From: a virus
Direction: 5' to 3' (one strand)
IMG/VR virus record: IMGVR_UViG_3300037329_000068
Location: 1 to 63,999 of that record
Length of the DNA stretch: 63,999 nt
Positions within the stretch are counted from its first letter, which is position 1. The number at the start of each line of letters is the position of its first letter. Below, piece by piece: positions 11,011 through 49,891 of the stretch. The translations under genes were made by a program, and so were the position numbers. Under the pieces are notes generated by a model. That model was not told where the DNA came from, searched no databases, and saw nothing but the letters and a program-made list of their open reading frames with translations.

Positions 11011-11228
11011 TGAAGGTATCACAACGCAGAAATAAAGTCACCCAATCTATTGAACAGCTATGGGAATCAATTGCAAATCTATCTTCTCATGTTGATGATG
11101 ATAATTATAAATGTGATGAATACCCAAAAACAGTAAGAGAACGCCAATTGCTCAGTATAAAAATTATTATTTCAGAAATTGAAAAAACTATAGAATACCA
11201 AGAAACTTTTGGAGAAACCAATGATTAA
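11010..11228 (+). CDS. Small helical early protein, unknown
   Basis: 72 residues, TAATG-coupled to the previous gene. Predicted mostly helical (IEQLWESIANLSSHV). Its middle resembles the 92-residue protein at 23749-24027 (RIWESINELETKL), possibly distant paralogues. Confidence 0.7.
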   Translation: MKVSQRRNKVTQSIEQLWESIANLSSHVDDDNYKCDEYPKTVRERQLLSIKIIISEIEKTIEYQETFGETND

Positions 11229-11352
11229 AGCAATTTACAAATTTTTTTCCGGTAATCTTGAAATTGATATTGATGCCGTTTATTCTGTAGCAGAACTATT
11301 AGGACCAACAGAGGATTTTGACGGGCTTGTTAGCTCACTTGAAGACATGTAA
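11221..11352 (+). CDS. Very small early protein, unknown
   Basis: 43 residues starting MIKAIYKFFSGNLEIDID. A GGAGA site lies at the right distance and the gene overlaps the upstream stop by 8 bases. Ends just before the tRNA gene. No known family. Confidence 0.6.
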   Translation: MIKAIYKFFSGNLEIDIDAVYSVAELLGPTEDFDGLVSSLEDM

Positions 11353-15364: not shown

Positions 15365-16351
15365 ATGGAACAGGAACTTTTTAGCTTTGGCTCTGTTGAG
15401 TCTCTTCACAATAAAGTAAAGGTAGCCCATCGTTACCCAGAACCAGAACGGATGTTTTTTGCCAAGCCTAAGCTTCACGGAACAAACGCAAGCATTGTTT
15501 TCAAAGCTCGTGGAATAGTCTACGCACAATCCCGTAAGAATGTCTTGACGCTCGAAAACGACAATGCTGGATTTGCTCGTTGGGTTTCTGAACTAAATTT
15601 TAAAGATTTTGTTTTTGACGGTATGACATGGATTCTTTACGGTGAATGGGCTGGCCAAGGCATTGGGAAAAATGATGCAGTGACTAAAATCGGAAAGAAA
15701 GCATTTTTCCCAATTTGCCTCCGTCGCATCTATAGTGATGATAGACTTGATCGTATAGATCATGAAGAGTATCTTATTAAATCTGGTCTTGAGAATATGG
15801 GAATTGTTGATCACCCAGACATCTACATCATCCCGAAAATCGGAGAAATTAGCATTTGTCTTAACGGAAACTTTGTTCACCTAGCAAAAGTAGAAACCTA
15901 TGTAAACACAATGGTAGAAAATTTTGAAACGGTTGATCCTTACATTCAAAAACAATTTGGGGTTGAAGCCGCTGGCGAAGGTGTGGTATTCTACCCAGAC
16001 ACCCATGATTGGGAAACATATAAGAATTTAATGTTCAAGGCTAAGACAGAAGCACATAGGGTGAACAAGTCAAATTCTGCGGCAAGTGCGAAAGTTGAAG
16101 TAAGTCATTACGTAGTAGAATTTGCAGAGAAGTTTGCAACAATTCAGCGATTTGAACAAGCGATGACAGAAATAAACACTGGATTTGATATGAAATCTAT
16201 GGGACAATTCTTGAAGTGGGTTAATACTGATATTTTAAAAGAAAGCAAAGATGAGATCGAAGAATCCGAACTTAACTGGAAAGAGTGTGCTAAAGAAATT
16301 ACAAACGTGAGCCGTGGTTGGTTCATGAACAACGCAAAGAGGATTACATAA
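15365..16351 (+). CDS. RNA ligase, Rnl2 family
   Basis: 328 residues, like T4 Rnl2 (334). Motif I is KLHGTN with adenylated lysine K36, aligned with K35 of T4 Rnl2. Motif III-like WILYGEW and motif IV GEGVVFYP, then the KNLMFKAKT segment with motif V lysines, are present. It seals 3'-OH/5'-PO4 nicks in duplex RNA, for example in cleaved tRNA. No polynucleotide kinase is seen nearby. Confidence 0.94.
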   Translation: MEQELFSFGSVESLHNKVKVAHRYPEPERMFFAKPKLHGTNASIVFKARGIVYAQSRKNVLTLENDNAGFARWVSELNFKDFVFDGMTWILYGEWAGQGIGKNDAVTKIGKKAFFPICLRRIYSDDRLDRIDHEEYLIKSGLENMGIVDHPDIYIIPKIGEISICLNGNFVHLAKVETYVNTMVENFETVDPYIQKQFGVEAAGEGVVFYPDTHDWETYKNLMFKAKTEAHRVNKSNSAASAKVEVSHYVVEFAEKFATIQRFEQAMTEINTGFDMKSMGQFLKWVNTDILKESKDEIEESELNWKECAKEITNVSRGWFMNNAKRIT

Positions 16352-17144: not shown

Positions 17145-17188
17145 TTGACGCGGTATCCTCAGTATGAGAAGATAATCTTGTACTGAGG
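17145..17188 (+). promoter_or_regulatory. Early promoter with dyad, family 1 (archetype)
   Basis: TTGACG, 17 bases, GAAGAT at 17168-17173, TG at the extended position. Perfect arms CCTCAGTA (17157-17164) and TACTGAGG (17181-17188). Confidence 0.92.
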
Positions 17189-17214
17189 AATTACCATTTT
17201 CTAGGAGACTGATT

Positions 17215-30214: not shown

Positions 30215-31054
30215 ATGAAAAAATTTACTGAATTCACTAATGATCTAATTAGTGAAAAGCTAATTACTTTCGGTGGAAAGGCGTATCCAAATTTTGGACA
30301 GATTGTTATTTTGGCAGGCGGAGCAGGCTCGGGCAAGGGATTCGTACTTGATATGCTTTTGGGTATTGATGGAACTGTTCTGGATGTTGACGCACTCAAA
30401 AAATTGGTAATGGGTTCTGATAAAATGTCAAAACGCATCAAAGACGAGACTGGACAAGATATAAAAAACTTCGACTTGCGAAAGTCAGAAAATGTTTCTA
30501 AGCTTCATGAACTTTTGTCTGATGTCTATGGTATTACCAAATCAAATGAGCGTAGAATTTTTGCAGGTGCTCTTGCTGCCCCCGCTGACCGAAAACCAAA
30601 CATTATTTTTGACGTAACACTAAAAGATATGAGCAAACTTGAAAAGCTTACACGCAATGCTATTGAACTTGGTTATCAAAGAGAAAATATTCACCTCGTG
30701 TGGGTAATTAATGACGTTGCCATTGCTACCGAACAAAATGCTGGTCGTTCTAGAGTGGTTCCAGAAGAAATTCTTTTTGCTACTCACGAGGGCGCAAGTT
30801 TAACAATGCGAAAATTGGTTGATACAGATATCAAAATCTCTAGATATCTTGATGGTGATATCTGGTTTTCGTTCAACAAGGTTGGTGTGGACACAGAACT
30901 TTCAAAATCTGATTTTGGTGGGTCTTATATTTCAGATGCTAACTACATTCAAATTAAGAAGCAAGGTAAGAAACCAATGGATTTGCTAGACATTGGAGAG
31001 CGACTTCTTCTTAAAATTAAATTCTATACTCCACCATCAAAGACTTGGCAGTAA
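30215..31054 (+). CDS. Zeta-toxin-like P-loop kinase, late expressed
   Basis: 279 residues. Walker A is GGAGSGKG (35-42), with LDVDALKKL and NIIFDVTLKD strands matching zeta/AAA_33-type kinases. The first 14 residues, MKKFTEFTNDLISE, resemble a T4 capsid-targeting peptide with a gp21-type cleavage site (ISE). Together with its late promoter, this suggests the kinase may be packaged in the head and injected. The substrate is unknown. Confidence 0.85.
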   Translation: MKKFTEFTNDLISEKLITFGGKAYPNFGQIVILAGGAGSGKGFVLDMLLGIDGTVLDVDALKKLVMGSDKMSKRIKDETGQDIKNFDLRKSENVSKLHELLSDVYGITKSNERRIFAGALAAPADRKPNIIFDVTLKDMSKLEKLTRNAIELGYQRENIHLVWVINDVAIATEQNAGRSRVVPEEILFATHEGASLTMRKLVDTDIKISRYLDGDIWFSFNKVGVDTELSKSDFGGSYISDANYIQIKKQGKKPMDLLDIGERLLLKIKFYTPPSKTWQ

Positions 31055-38916: not shown

Positions 38917-38924
38917 TATAAATA
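38917..38924 (+). promoter_or_regulatory. Late promoter TATAAATA
   Basis: Exact octamer followed by GG, 34 bases before ATG 38958. Confidence 0.85.
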
Positions 38925-38957: not shown

Positions 38958-39389
38958 ATGACTTACGTTGATAAAGGACTAACTCTACCGGAAGTATTTA
39001 AAAGAGTTGCAGAAAAAGAAACAATTGAAGAAAAAGCAAAACTGTTGAAATTGTACGAAACAAAAAGCTTGCGTTGGTTTATTGACTCGTTGTATAATCG
39101 TGACTTATCTGATATTGCAATTCCACAATACAAAGTTTCTGTTAATCCATCTGGTATTGCTTTCATGAACATCAACAATTCTATTAGCAGAATTGAAGCA
39201 GCCATCAGTAATAAAGACAAACCACAAATTTTAAATCGTAATTTGACATTGGTTCTAGAGGGAGTCACTTCTGATGAAGCGATTCTTATTGAAAAAATAT
39301 TAAAAGGCGAACGCAGAATTAATGGCGTATCGAAAACGGTTTTTAAGAAGGCATACCCTGAATTTTTTCGTACTGAGGAAGAGGTTTAA
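38958..39389 (+). CDS. Late protein, DUF6433-like
   Basis: 143 residues. Pattern LTLPEVFKRVAEKETIEEKA, KLYETKSLRWFI, GERRINGVSKTVFKKAYP follows a conserved T4-like phage family I associate with DUF6433. Role unknown; late promoter suggests assembly or packaging. Confidence 0.78.
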   Translation: MTYVDKGLTLPEVFKRVAEKETIEEKAKLLKLYETKSLRWFIDSLYNRDLSDIAIPQYKVSVNPSGIAFMNINNSISRIEAAISNKDKPQILNRNLTLVLEGVTSDEAILIEKILKGERRINGVSKTVFKKAYPEFFRTEEEV

Positions 39390-39427: not shown

Positions 39428-39457
39428 ACAAACCCCATTCATCCGTTTGGGGTTTTC
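39428..39457 (+). terminator. Rho-independent terminator
   Basis: AAACCCC/GGGGTTTT stem with an ATTCATCCGTT loop, ending TTTTC. Lies 20 bases before the arfA-like start. Confidence 0.85.
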
Positions 39458-39475: not shown

Positions 39476-39658
39476 ATGTCGTTTCAACATGATAAAGGAA
39501 AAATAAAACACAATGCGTTGGCAGCATTGGTAACATCTAATGCTTTTTTACCAAAGAAAGAAAAAATCAAAAAAGGCAAAGGATCATACAACCGAAACAA
39601 TAAGCACAAATCAGACTACTCACATAATCGCATTTTCAAAATGTTATTTTGTAAGTAG
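39476..39658 (+). CDS. arfA: ArfA-like alternative ribosome-rescue factor
   Basis: 60 residues. It matches E. coli ArfA through HDKGKIKHNALAAL, then the key KKGKGSYNRNNKH block that in ArfA fills the empty mRNA channel and recruits RF2. The C-terminal 15 residues are encoded by a long hairpin whose right arm contains the TAG stop, mirroring the host gene where RNase III cleavage gives a nonstop mRNA. Predicted role: rescuing stalled ribosomes when trans-translation is overwhelmed. Confidence 0.9.
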   Translation: MSFQHDKGKIKHNALAALVTSNAFLPKKEKIKKGKGSYNRNNKHKSDYSHNRIFKMLFCK

Positions 39659-39668
39659 TCTTTTTTTT
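39613..39668 (+). terminator. Terminator hairpin overlapping arfA stop codon
   Basis: AGACTACT (39613-39620) pairs AGTAGTCT (39654-39661); the inner part continues with ACATAAT/ATTTTGT-type pairs and CATTTT/AAAATG, giving about 24 pairs, followed by T8. The stop TAG at 39656-39658 lies in the right arm. Confidence 0.9.
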
Positions 39669-42802: not shown

Positions 42803-42847
42803 TTGACCCAGAGCCCCTCGGTATGAGAAGATGGTCTTGTACTGAGG
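42803..42847 (+). promoter_or_regulatory. Early promoter with dyad, family 1
   Basis: TTGACC, 18 bases, GAAGAT at 42827-42832; arms CCTCGGTA and TACTGAGG, 16 apart. Confidence 0.88.
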
Positions 42848-42876
42848 GAATACCAGATCAACTAGGAGATTTAATT

Positions 42877-45986: not shown

Positions 45987-47612
45987 ATGGCAGCATTACT
46001 AGAAGATGATAATGTCAAGTTAGAAATTTTAAGGTATAAACACGATAATCTTTCAACGAGGCAAATTAGTCAACTAACAGGAATTGCAAGATCAACACTC
46101 AATGACTTCGTTTTGAAGAAGACATACACTAAATGGTGGGAAAAATACAGCCAAAAACCTGTAGCATCTGGTAAGTTGTCGGCACTGCACGAGGACATTG
46201 AAGTTTTGGGAGAAGGCGTTTATATCGCTATTTCTGCTCAGAACAACACGTTTGTACATAACAAGTTTATGGACAGTCTTGAGGGGTTGGCGTTACAAAG
46301 AAATGCTAGAATTTTATGTGGGACATTTACATACAACACATCAGGATTTCAGAACCTTCAAAAAGGAACTGACTCAGAAGAGGTGTGGTATGATCCTCGG
46401 ATTAAGAAGTACATCCTAGACAAGCCTGTGATGCTCTCTGACGACCTTATGTGGTGTGGGGAACTCAACATACTACCTACAGCCGCAAACCCTCTTAGCG
46501 GGCTTCACAGTTACACTAGATCAGCCTCTGCTATTGTGCCTCATGCTAAATTGCAGCTTGAATCAATTCCAACCCACAAATCGCTTCCTGTAAAGATTAT
46601 GTATACAACAGGTGCGGTGACAAAAAGAAATTATATTCAAAAGAAAGCTGGACAAAAAGCAGAATTTCATCATGCTTTTAGTGCACTTTTAATTGAAGTT
46701 GATAGTGAAGGTACGCACTTTGTTCGCCAGTTAAATGCAGAAACAAGTACAGGATGTTTTTATGATCTAGACAGGTATTATACACCCAATGGCGGTTTGT
46801 ATATTTCTGATTATGTAGAAGCTATTAATTGGGGTGATCTTCACTCTGAAAAGAAAGATGTTGAAGTGTATGATCTGGCGTTTGGTAGAAATCCAAACAG
46901 CATGATAGATACACTACGCCCGAAGGTTCAGTTTGCAAACGATCTTGCAGATTTTACCTCTAGGAATCACCACAGCATCGGCGATCCGTATTTCAGGTTT
47001 AAGACGCATGTTCATGGAAATGACTCAGTGAGGAATGATATTTTTGCCGTTATTTCAACACTTGAATCTATGGAAAGGTGTTTTTGTCAAACTGTTGTGG
47101 TCGAATCAAATCATGATTTAGCACTTGAGCGATGGTTGAAGAATGCTGATTACAAAATTGATCCAGAAAACGCTATCTTCTTCCTTGAATGCCAGCTAAA
47201 GAAATATAAGACAATTGAAGAAGGGGACTTTGGGTTTTCTGTCTTTGAGTGGGCTGTCAAAAACAATTCAAAAGAATTAGACCACGTTAGGTTTTTGAAA
47301 ACAGATGAGTCTTTCCGTATCTGTGACGAAGATGGAAATGGCATTGAATGCGGTCAACACGGCCACAACGGGGCCAATGGTAGTAGAGGCGGGGTAGCCG
47401 TATTTCAAAGGTTAGGAAGTCGTCACAACGTAGGACACACCCATACAGCGACAATTAAGGATGGTGTGTATTACGCTGGTGTAATGGCTAATCTAGATAT
47501 GGGATATAACATAGGTGGTTCAAGTTGGTCACAAAGCTGTATTATAACGTACCCAAATAGCAAGAGAACAATCATTACAATTAAAGACGGCAAATGGAGA
47601 GGTAATGTATGA
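45987..47612 (+). CDS. T5 A1-like metallophosphoesterase with N-terminal HTH
   Basis: 541 residues. Helix-turn-helix at 22-42 (LSTRQISQLTGIARSTLND). Phosphoesterase motifs: GDLH 283-286, SNHD 374-377, HGHNG near 458, and GHTH 483-486. The order matches T5 A1 (pre-early DNA-transfer/degradation protein) and its homologues in other large phages. Likely acts on DNA during host takeover or replication; substrate unproven. Confidence 0.85.
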   Translation: MAALLEDDNVKLEILRYKHDNLSTRQISQLTGIARSTLNDFVLKKTYTKWWEKYSQKPVASGKLSALHEDIEVLGEGVYIAISAQNNTFVHNKFMDSLEGLALQRNARILCGTFTYNTSGFQNLQKGTDSEEVWYDPRIKKYILDKPVMLSDDLMWCGELNILPTAANPLSGLHSYTRSASAIVPHAKLQLESIPTHKSLPVKIMYTTGAVTKRNYIQKKAGQKAEFHHAFSALLIEVDSEGTHFVRQLNAETSTGCFYDLDRYYTPNGGLYISDYVEAINWGDLHSEKKDVEVYDLAFGRNPNSMIDTLRPKVQFANDLADFTSRNHHSIGDPYFRFKTHVHGNDSVRNDIFAVISTLESMERCFCQTVVVESNHDLALERWLKNADYKIDPENAIFFLECQLKKYKTIEEGDFGFSVFEWAVKNNSKELDHVRFLKTDESFRICDEDGNGIECGQHGHNGANGSRGGVAVFQRLGSRHNVGHTHTATIKDGVYYAGVMANLDMGYNIGGSSWSQSCIITYPNSKRTIITIKDGKWRGNV

Positions 47613-48217
47613 GAAAGTTAGAATCGGTTATGATTAACGGTGGAGTAAATCCAGTTGAACAAAGAGCTTACCCAATATCTTCAATGTACAACTTTTATAT
47701 CTATGGAGAAATTGTCTCTGATATCGGATCATACGTTGATATGATCACAGTAATGGATACGGCAGAAGAAAATGATGTAATTAATCTTTACATTAACACT
47801 GGCGGAGGCTCACTTGAATCTACTATCTCAATCGTCCACGCAATGATTCGGTCAAAAGCACAAATTGTATGTCATGCAGATGGACAAATTGCTAGTGCAG
47901 GAACACTGATTTTCTTTGCAGGAAGTTCTTTTGTGGTTTATCCTTTTGCTCACGCTATGTTTCATGATGGCTCTACTATTATTGGTGGAAAGTTTTCTGA
48001 AAATTTGAAAGCGGCGGAAGCAACAAGTGCATTGATAAAGAAAATTTGTATGGAGCTTTATCGTCCATACTTTACCAAAAAAGAAGTTAAAGATATTCTA
48101 AATGGTAAAGATATGTACTTGACATCGGATGAATTAAACGACCGACTTATTGCAGGGGTAGAAATTAGTAAAAAAGAAGCGGAAGAACTGAAAGGACTAG
48201 AGGAACTTATTTCTTAA
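47609..48217 (+). CDS. ClpP-like serine protease
   Basis: 202 residues, ATGA-coupled to the A1-like gene. ClpP fold signatures: NLYINTGGGSLESTISI, GQIASAGT with nucleophile S96, and HAMFHDG with H119; the acid is probably D near 160. In other phages such enzymes are head-maturation proteases, but here no capsid genes are nearby, so a host-directed role is possible. Confidence 0.88.
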   Translation: MRKLESVMINGGVNPVEQRAYPISSMYNFYIYGEIVSDIGSYVDMITVMDTAEENDVINLYINTGGGSLESTISIVHAMIRSKAQIVCHADGQIASAGTLIFFAGSSFVVYPFAHAMFHDGSTIIGGKFSENLKAAEATSALIKKICMELYRPYFTKKEVKDILNGKDMYLTSDELNDRLIAGVEISKKEAEELKGLEELIS

Positions 48218-48234: not shown

Positions 48235-48276
48235 GTCTGTATGTATTATAAATTCAAATCTATAATACATACAGAC
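48235..48276. repeat. Perfect 16-base inverted repeat
   Basis: GTCTGTATGTATTATA (48235-48250), loop AATTCAAATC, TATAATACATACAGAC (48261-48276). No T-run follows on either side, so not a standard terminator. Confidence 0.9.
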
Positions 48277-49852: not shown

Positions 49853-49891
49853 GATACGCACTTTTTGGAAATACTCTGAAAAGTGCGTATC
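49853..49891. repeat. 13-base perfect inverted repeat after phoH
   Basis: GATACGCACTTTT (49853-49865) and AAAAGTGCGTATC (49879-49891) with a 13-base loop; no T-run follows. Confidence 0.88.

What the first reader, a model, noticed from the sequence alone, without database searches (positions are those of the whole stretch)
39476..39668. Phage-encoded ArfA with its stop codon buried in a long terminator hairpin
The 60-residue protein carries the ArfA core (IKHNALAAL and KKGKGSYNRNNKH). The last 15 codons and the TAG stop lie in a hairpin of about 24 pairs with T8 after it. In E. coli arfA, a comparable hairpin is cut by RNase III so the mRNA has no stop and the product is only made when tmRNA fails. 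The phage keeps both protein and control logic, implying it needs ribosome rescue when it degrades or truncates mRNAs. I do not know of a described phage case.
Basis: partly seen in the sequence, partly recalled or inferred. Interest (0 to 1): 0.9.

Follow-up and report, generated by a model that had tools for sequence, protein, structure and literature searches.

The report
Phage ArfA gene ending in hairpin
A T4-related phage carries its own copy of the bacterial emergency factor ArfA, which frees ribosomes stuck on broken messages, and the gene still ends in the stem-loop that in bacteria keeps ArfA off unless the main rescue system (tmRNA) fails; phage ArfA genes turn out to be widespread, but only a minority keep this switch.

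Summary
Window 39476-39658 (+) encodes a 60-aa protein matching Pfam ArfA at 65.9 bits (cut-off 25.5). Its last ~14 codons and TAG stop lie in a regular stem-loop (39613-39661; 20 pairs in 23 stem positions, not 24) followed by T8. Nothing that regular arose in four random 64-kb sequences, and a sibling phage (L002) keeps the stem although its stop lies in the loop. The stem starts at codon 46, matching the last residue E. coli ArfA needs, so cleavage inside it should leave an active protein without a stop codon. Morganellaceae and Pseudoalteromonas arfA genes have the same layout.

Two corrections. Phage ArfA is not undescribed: RXM g10 and pelagiphage HTVC027P gp30 are published, and J2-1 is annotated. 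And it is common: I collected 98 distinct ArfA-like proteins from phage records and viral contigs (36 scanned, all match Pfam ArfA). In the window's pf16-related group, arfA follows a phrog_461 gene in all seven lineages seen. Most phage copies lack the stem-loop; 13 of 98 pass a strict hairpin test (0.3 expected).

Best reading: host-type non-stop arfA, kept silent by tmRNA and released when trans-translation is overloaded. Cleavage, tagging and rescue activity are untested.

The parts
39476..39658 (+). arfA ORF, 60 aa, stop TAG
   Evidence: Pfam PF03889 65.9 bits; PDB ArfA chains E about 1e-8; sibling L002 96% identical over residues 1-53
39482..39610 (+). ArfA core (profile match, model positions 2-44), codons 3-45
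   Evidence: all 11 columns invariant in a phage + bacterial alignment are present: G8 N13 A17 F24 K32 K33 G34 K35 G36 Y38 R40
39613..39661 (+). stem-loop spanning the last ~14 codons and the stop codon; 20 pairs, three 1x1 mismatches, triloop
39656..39658 (+). TAG stop codon, in the 3' arm of the stem
39661..39668 (+). T8 tract directly after the stem (intrinsic-terminator-like)
   Evidence: its first T is the outermost base of the stem
38958..39389 (+). phrog_461 gene (unknown function), conserved directly upstream of arfA in pf16-related phages
   Evidence: synteny
38917..38924 (+). TATAAATA, T4-type late-promoter-like box upstream of phrog_461-arfA (putative)
   Evidence: 13 in window, 6.0 expected; not tested
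39430..39455 (+). short inverted repeat AAACCCC...GGGGTTT between phrog_461 and arfA, kept in L002
39696..40214 (+). next gene, HAD domain of RNA-repair type (PF18143 HAD_SAK_2); begins 37 nt after the arfA stop
   Evidence: present after arfA in L002 (71%) and a weak match after arfA in L113

Best explanation
This is a phage-borne alternative ribosome-rescue factor A with the host-type non-stop control. Shown: the protein is an ArfA, and a long regular stem-loop with a T8 tail begins where the essential ArfA core ends and contains the stop codon. Inferred: host RNase III cuts the stem (or a 3' exonuclease enters it), removing the stop codon; ribosomes then stall at the end of the arfA message. 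While host tmRNA-SmpB has spare capacity, the nascent ArfA is tagged and degraded. When infection or a host nuclease makes more truncated mRNAs than trans-translation can clear, truncated ArfA of about 46-52 residues escapes, recruits host RF2 to release stalled ribosomes, including those on its own mRNA, and so amplifies itself. The phage would thus carry its own emergency reserve of ribosome rescue, used on demand.
For: ArfA profile match far over cut-off. Residues reported to act with RF2 and in the mRNA tunnel are present: Ala18, Leu19, Phe25 and the basic 31-48 region (PMC5378476, PMC3989581) correspond to A17, L18, F24 and KIKKGKGSYNRNNKHK here. E. coli ArfA works when cut after Asn47 but not much shorter (PMC5378476); the phage stem starts in codon 46, the equivalent position (alignment). 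The same layout is seen in bacteria: Morganellaceae with 23-33 pairs and the stop in the 3' arm before a T-rich tail; Pseudoalteromonas and Paraglaciecola, the closest proteins, with 16-21 pairs and the stop mid-hairpin; 57 of 80 bacterial arfA loci pass a strict hairpin test, 0.0 expected from shuffles. The sibling L002 differs at 27% of 3'-arm positions yet folds better (-20.3), with the stop in the loop and a 54-aa ORF: the stem is kept while the tail peptide is not. Other phages keep it too: 13 of 98 distinct phage ArfA ORFs pass the same test against 0.3 expected, including contig L098 (281 kb, with a tail sheath gene; 23 pairs) and L203 (239 kb). In E. coli this kind of stem is cut by RNase III and also terminates transcription (PMC3989581).
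Against: No transcript, cleavage or protein data. The T8 tail means the stem could be a plain terminator; the terminated mRNA would still contain the stop codon. Most phage ArfAs, including pf16 and four other lineages with the same upstream gene, have an ordinary stop and no stem, so the switch is not needed by phages in general. The tail RIFKMLFCK is only mildly hydrophobic, unlike the unstable E. coli tail. Only one sibling sequence is available for covariation.
Confidence: 0.62

Rival explanations
1. The protein is a working ArfA, but the stem-loop is simply the gene's intrinsic terminator, squeezed into the reading frame because only 37 nt separate arfA from the next gene. ArfA is made constitutively as a 60-aa protein with a normal stop.
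For: T8 follows directly; phage genomes are compact; most phage ArfAs do have an ordinary stop; 8 of 133 window gene ends have some stop-spanning fold of similar energy.
Against: The clear terminators of this genome have 8-14 bp GC-rich stems and lie after their stop codons; this one is AU-rich, 20 pairs long, and starts exactly at the end of the functional core. The sibling keeps stop-in-stem with a different stop position. Related bacterial genes with the same layout are known non-stop genes.
Confidence: 0.25
2. The protein has been repurposed: it uses the ArfA fold to act on RF2 or the ribosome for another end, such as blocking host ArfA/tmRNA access, shifting termination, or freeing ribosomes from host mRNAs so that they load phage mRNA.
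For: The short phage forms L004, L005 and L240 keep the KKGKGSYxR tunnel motif with a changed N-terminus, and some are fused to another domain (L125, L128, L150), so phages do remodel ArfA.
Against: In the window protein all invariant columns, including the RF2-binding part, are kept and it scores as an ordinary ArfA.
Confidence: 0.08
3. A recently captured host gene, or host contamination, carried without function.
For: The best bacterial match is 64% identical, and the hairpin resembles that of Pseudoalteromonas.
Against: It sits between phage genes; arfA follows phrog_461 in seven phage lineages; core DNA is 93% conserved between siblings whereas the next gene is 74%, with silent changes predominating.
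Confidence: 0.03

Closest known systems
E. coli ArfA (YhdL) and its RNase III-cleaved non-stop mRNA (PMC3989581, PMC8012679)
   Same: ArfA core, length class, stem-loop at the 3' end of the ORF starting after the minimal functional core; cutting it removes the stop codon
   Different: Phage-encoded; shorter ORF (60 against 72 aa); stop codon inside the stem rather than beyond it; T8 tail; cleavage not tested
Morganellaceae and Pseudoalteromonas arfA (L032-L085, L010, L011, L022)
   Same: Stop codon inside a 16-33 pair stem followed by a T-rich tail
   Different: Chromosomal; 40-64% protein identity; stems usually longer
Bacillus BrfA
   Same: RF2-recruiting rescue factor made from a gene with a terminator before its stop codon, controlled by trans-translation (PMC8012679)
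   Different: Distant or different protein; Firmicutes; terminator ends before the stop
Phage ArfAs already reported: RXM g10 (PMC8953757), HTVC027P gp30 (PMC12753301), J2-1 (GenBank)
   Same: ArfA family genes in phages
   Different: HTVC027P and J2-1 have no stem over the stop; RXM has an 11-bp stem inside the ORF that was not noted. All three are more distant from E. coli ArfA by Pfam score
Pseudomonas phage pf16 ArfA (unannotated, minus strand about 131775-131920)
   Same: Same upstream phrog_461 gene; same phage group by baseplate protein (41.7%)
   Different: Ordinary TGA stop, no stem; also encodes SspB, the adaptor for SsrA-tagged proteins

Membership tests
ArfA (PF03889) | Profile match over the curated cut-off | tested here: met
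   65.9 bits against 25.5
ArfA (PF03889) | Conserved N-terminal RF2-contact residues (E. coli A18, L19, F25) | tested here: met
   A17, L18, F24 present; Leu24 of E. coli is Ala23 here
ArfA (PF03889) | Basic C-terminal mRNA-tunnel segment KKGKGSYxR..KH | tested here: met
   KKGKGSYNRNNKH
ArfA (PF03889) | RF2-dependent peptide release on non-stop ribosomes; complements arfA ssrA loss | not testable with these tools
   bench assays needed
Non-stop arfA (RNase III or terminator controlled) | Stem-loop that starts after the functional core and before the stop codon | tested here: met
   39613-39661, starts in codon 46
Non-stop arfA (RNase III or terminator controlled) | Stem conserved in relatives though the tail peptide is not | tested here: met
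   L002, one distinct sibling only
Non-stop arfA (RNase III or terminator controlled) | Transcript cut or ended before the stop codon in cells | not testable with these tools
   needs 3' RACE with and without RNase III
Non-stop arfA (RNase III or terminator controlled) | Product tagged by tmRNA and raised in ssrA mutants | not testable with these tools
   needs tagging assay
Plain intrinsic terminator | Short GC-rich stem after the stop codon, then T tract | tested here: not met
   T tract yes; stem AU-rich, 20 pairs, covers the stop

The most novel reading that the evidence does not exclude
Several unrelated phages have kept, or re-evolved, an ArfA gene whose own message is a sensor of tmRNA capacity, so the phage switches on a private ribosome-rescue factor exactly when host trans-translation is overwhelmed, for example when host defence nucleases cut mRNA; other phages have removed the sensor and make ArfA constitutively. 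Phage ArfA would then be a general counter to translation-stalling defences.
Probability: 0.3. Interest if true: 0.78.

Novelty: new member of a known kind. Interest (0 to 1): 0.56.

Why it matters
Ribosome rescue is essential in bacteria, yet a phage-owned rescue factor has only been mentioned in passing. The survey shows ArfA is a recurrent phage gene, captured at least three times in the gammaproteobacterial type, and splits phages into those with and without the non-stop switch. That gives a natural comparison for an open question: do phages overload trans-translation, and does rescue capacity limit infection, especially against mRNA-cutting defences? pf16, a cultured phage with an unannotated arfA plus SspB, is a direct test bed.

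Tried and rejected
INPHARED tblastn with the window protein itself gave nothing; a Providencia ArfA query found the phage homologues. PHROGs and NCBIfam have no matching model. Folding wide 170-nt regions gave uninformative large folds; replaced by local single-hairpin and ungapped inverted-repeat tests. Folding energy alone as proof of a special hairpin was rejected after the gene-end control. A phage tmRNA partner: none over the Rfam cut-off in 20 phage records; the sub-threshold hits are short, tRNA-sized stretches. SspB in the window: not found, only in pf16. L097 is probably a Neisseria chromosomal arfA in a prophage-flanking contig and was not counted as phage evidence; several short alphaproteobacterial-type contigs (L183, L186, L190, L192, L204, L205) lack hallmark genes in the two families searched and may be host. 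ArfA tree: only 44 columns, weakly resolved, used only for the count of origins. The two primary papers on non-stop arfA (PMC3436202, PMC3103599) are not held; reviews were used. No structure prediction was run, as ArfA is largely disordered off the ribosome (own knowledge).

Full report
What is there. The ORF at 39476-39658 encodes MSFQHDKGKIKHNALAALVTSNAFLPKKEKIKKGKGSYNRNNKHKSDYSHNRIFKMLFCK. It matches Pfam ArfA over residues 3-45 at 65.9 bits, cut-off 25.5, and E. coli ArfA in ribosome structures at about 1e-8. Every column invariant in an alignment of 2 phage and 12 bacterial ArfAs is kept.

The host record is a phage: a 63,999-base virus record with spanins directly upstream (phrog_739, phrog_812), RIIA/RIIB, a T4-type baseplate wedge, hub lysozyme, tail tube and DNA end protector. 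By its baseplate protein the nearest sequenced phage is Pseudomonas phage pf16 at 41.7%, described as a peripheral T4-like group (PMC5587285). The closest bacterial ArfAs are from Pseudoalteromonas, Alishewanella, Paraglaciecola and Shewanella, which hints at, but does not prove, an Alteromonadales host.

The hairpin. 39613-39661 forms 20 canonical pairs over 23 stem positions with three 1x1 mismatches and a triloop, followed by T8; z -5.4, 0 of 200 shuffles as low. It starts in codon 46, equivalent to E. coli Asn47, the point up to which E. coli ArfA can be cut and still work (PMC5378476). The stop codon lies in the 3' arm. As an inverted repeat it is matched or beaten by only four others in 64 kb, none holding a gene's stop codon, and by none in four random 64-kb sequences. 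A fair caution: 8 of 133 gene ends have some irregular stop-spanning fold of -14 or lower.

Conservation. L002 and L003 (IMG/VR contigs of 73 and 28 kb) carry the same locus. L002: arfA core 93% identical in DNA, hairpin region 80%, 3' arm 73%, next gene 74%. The L002 stem has 20 pairs at -20.3 kcal/mol, and its TAA is in the loop, giving a 54-aa protein. So the stem persists while stop position and tail peptide change. This is what selection on the stem predicts, but it rests on one distinct sibling.

Bacterial comparison. In 80 bacterial loci, 57 pass a strict test (inverted repeat starting after the core, before or over the stop, strong or T-tailed), 0.0 expected from shuffles. Morganellaceae have 23-33 pairs with TAG or TAA in the 3' arm before a T-rich tail, the same plan as the window; Pseudoalteromonas and Paraglaciecola have 16-21 pairs with the stop mid-hairpin. 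In E. coli such a stem is cut by RNase III and also causes premature termination, giving a non-stop mRNA whose product is tagged by tmRNA and appears only when trans-translation is limiting (PMC3989581, PMC8012679).

Phage survey. Five completed IMG/VR scans and several INPHARED searches gave 98 distinct ArfA-like proteins. Of 36 tested, all match PF03889 at E 0.01 or better. They include cultured phages: pf16, Salmonella phage Arash (annotated as ribosomal protein L2), J2-1, RXM, HTVC027P, Cr30, CRP-212 and XM05. Thirteen of 98 pass the strict hairpin test against 0.3 expected. L002 misses it by one base of window, and L096 (a perfect terminator whose T tract runs into the TAA) misses on the T count. 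The firmest independent cases are the window with L002, L096, L098 (281-kb contig with a sheath gene, 23 pairs) and L203 (239 kb). Arash-type, pf16-type and most alphaproteobacterial-type phage ArfAs have ordinary stops.

Evolution. The phrog_461 gene lies directly upstream of arfA in the window/L002, pf16, L095, L096, L099, L113 and L269, at 29-47% protein identity to the window across lineages: seven lineages, so arfA is an old fixture of the pf16-related group. Within it only the window/L002 line and L096 have 3' structures over the stop. A 44-column tree puts L098 with Pseudoalteromonas and the Arash type with Enterobacterales, both well supported, and needs several origins.

Mechanism. 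Most likely the phage gene behaves as the host gene does: RNase III (or termination plus exonucleases) removes the stop codon, tmRNA keeps ArfA low, and overload of trans-translation releases active truncated ArfA, which recruits RF2. Shown here: protein identity, hairpin, position relative to the functional core, conservation, parallels. Inferred: cleavage, tagging, induction, benefit. In T4-infected E. coli tmRNA stays abundant while host mRNAs and tRNAs are degraded (PMC9697503), so a rescue demand during infection of T4-like phages is plausible. The neighbourhood fits an RNA-damage theme: a HAD domain of RNA-repair type follows arfA, and an RNA ligase is at 15365-16351; this is circumstantial.

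Novelty. Phage ArfA itself is on record (RXM, HTVC027P, J2-1). I found no text describing the non-stop hairpin arrangement in a phage, within the open-access library searched. I therefore call it a new member of a known kind, with the retained switch and the conserved phrog_461-arfA pair as the new points.

Noticed in passing
window 10737, 17163, 17458, 18038, 28089, 28795, 36108, 42468, 42822 (+) and 57672 (-): A repeated hairpin motif TATGAGAAGATNNTCTTGTA, ten copies with up to 3 mismatches (0.09 expected), flanked at 17156-17189 and 42815-42848 by complementary arms. Nearly absent from related phages (one copy in L003's contig). Function unknown.
   Followed up: partly
window 48235-48276 and 49853-49891: Two near-perfect inverted repeats (19 and 17 stem positions) without T tails, just after the ClpP-like and PhoH genes.
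   Followed up: no
L125, L126, L128, L129, L150-L155, L260, L264-L266: ArfA core fused to a second domain (..NKAGNYTKPxxRKRLF..GGAPGQWSARKAQM..KxGGGYK) in environmental phage contigs; a rescue-factor fusion not seen in bacteria here.
   Followed up: no
Pseudomonas phage pf16 NC_041881, about 131775-131920 (-): Unannotated arfA: a different ORF is annotated on the opposite strand. The phage also encodes SspB (PF04386, 2e-35), the adaptor for SsrA-tagged proteins, and a ClpP-like protease.
   Followed up: partly
Salmonella phage Arash OQ632216, 57934-58158 (-): Gene annotated as ribosomal protein L2 is an ArfA (68 bits).
   Followed up: yes
Caulobacter phage Cr30 NC_025422, about 11140-11285 (-): Unannotated ArfA-like ORF between annotated genes (26.9 bits, just over cut-off), although C. 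crescentus is reported to lack ArfA (PMC11633108).
   Followed up: partly
window 15365-16351, 30215-31054, 47609-48217: RNA ligase (PF09414), zeta-toxin-like kinase (PF06414) and ClpP-like protease (PF00574).
   Followed up: no
L004, L005, L240, L247: Short proteins with the KKGKGSYxR tunnel motif but a changed N-terminus; possible ArfA variants that may not use RF2 in the usual way.
   Followed up: no
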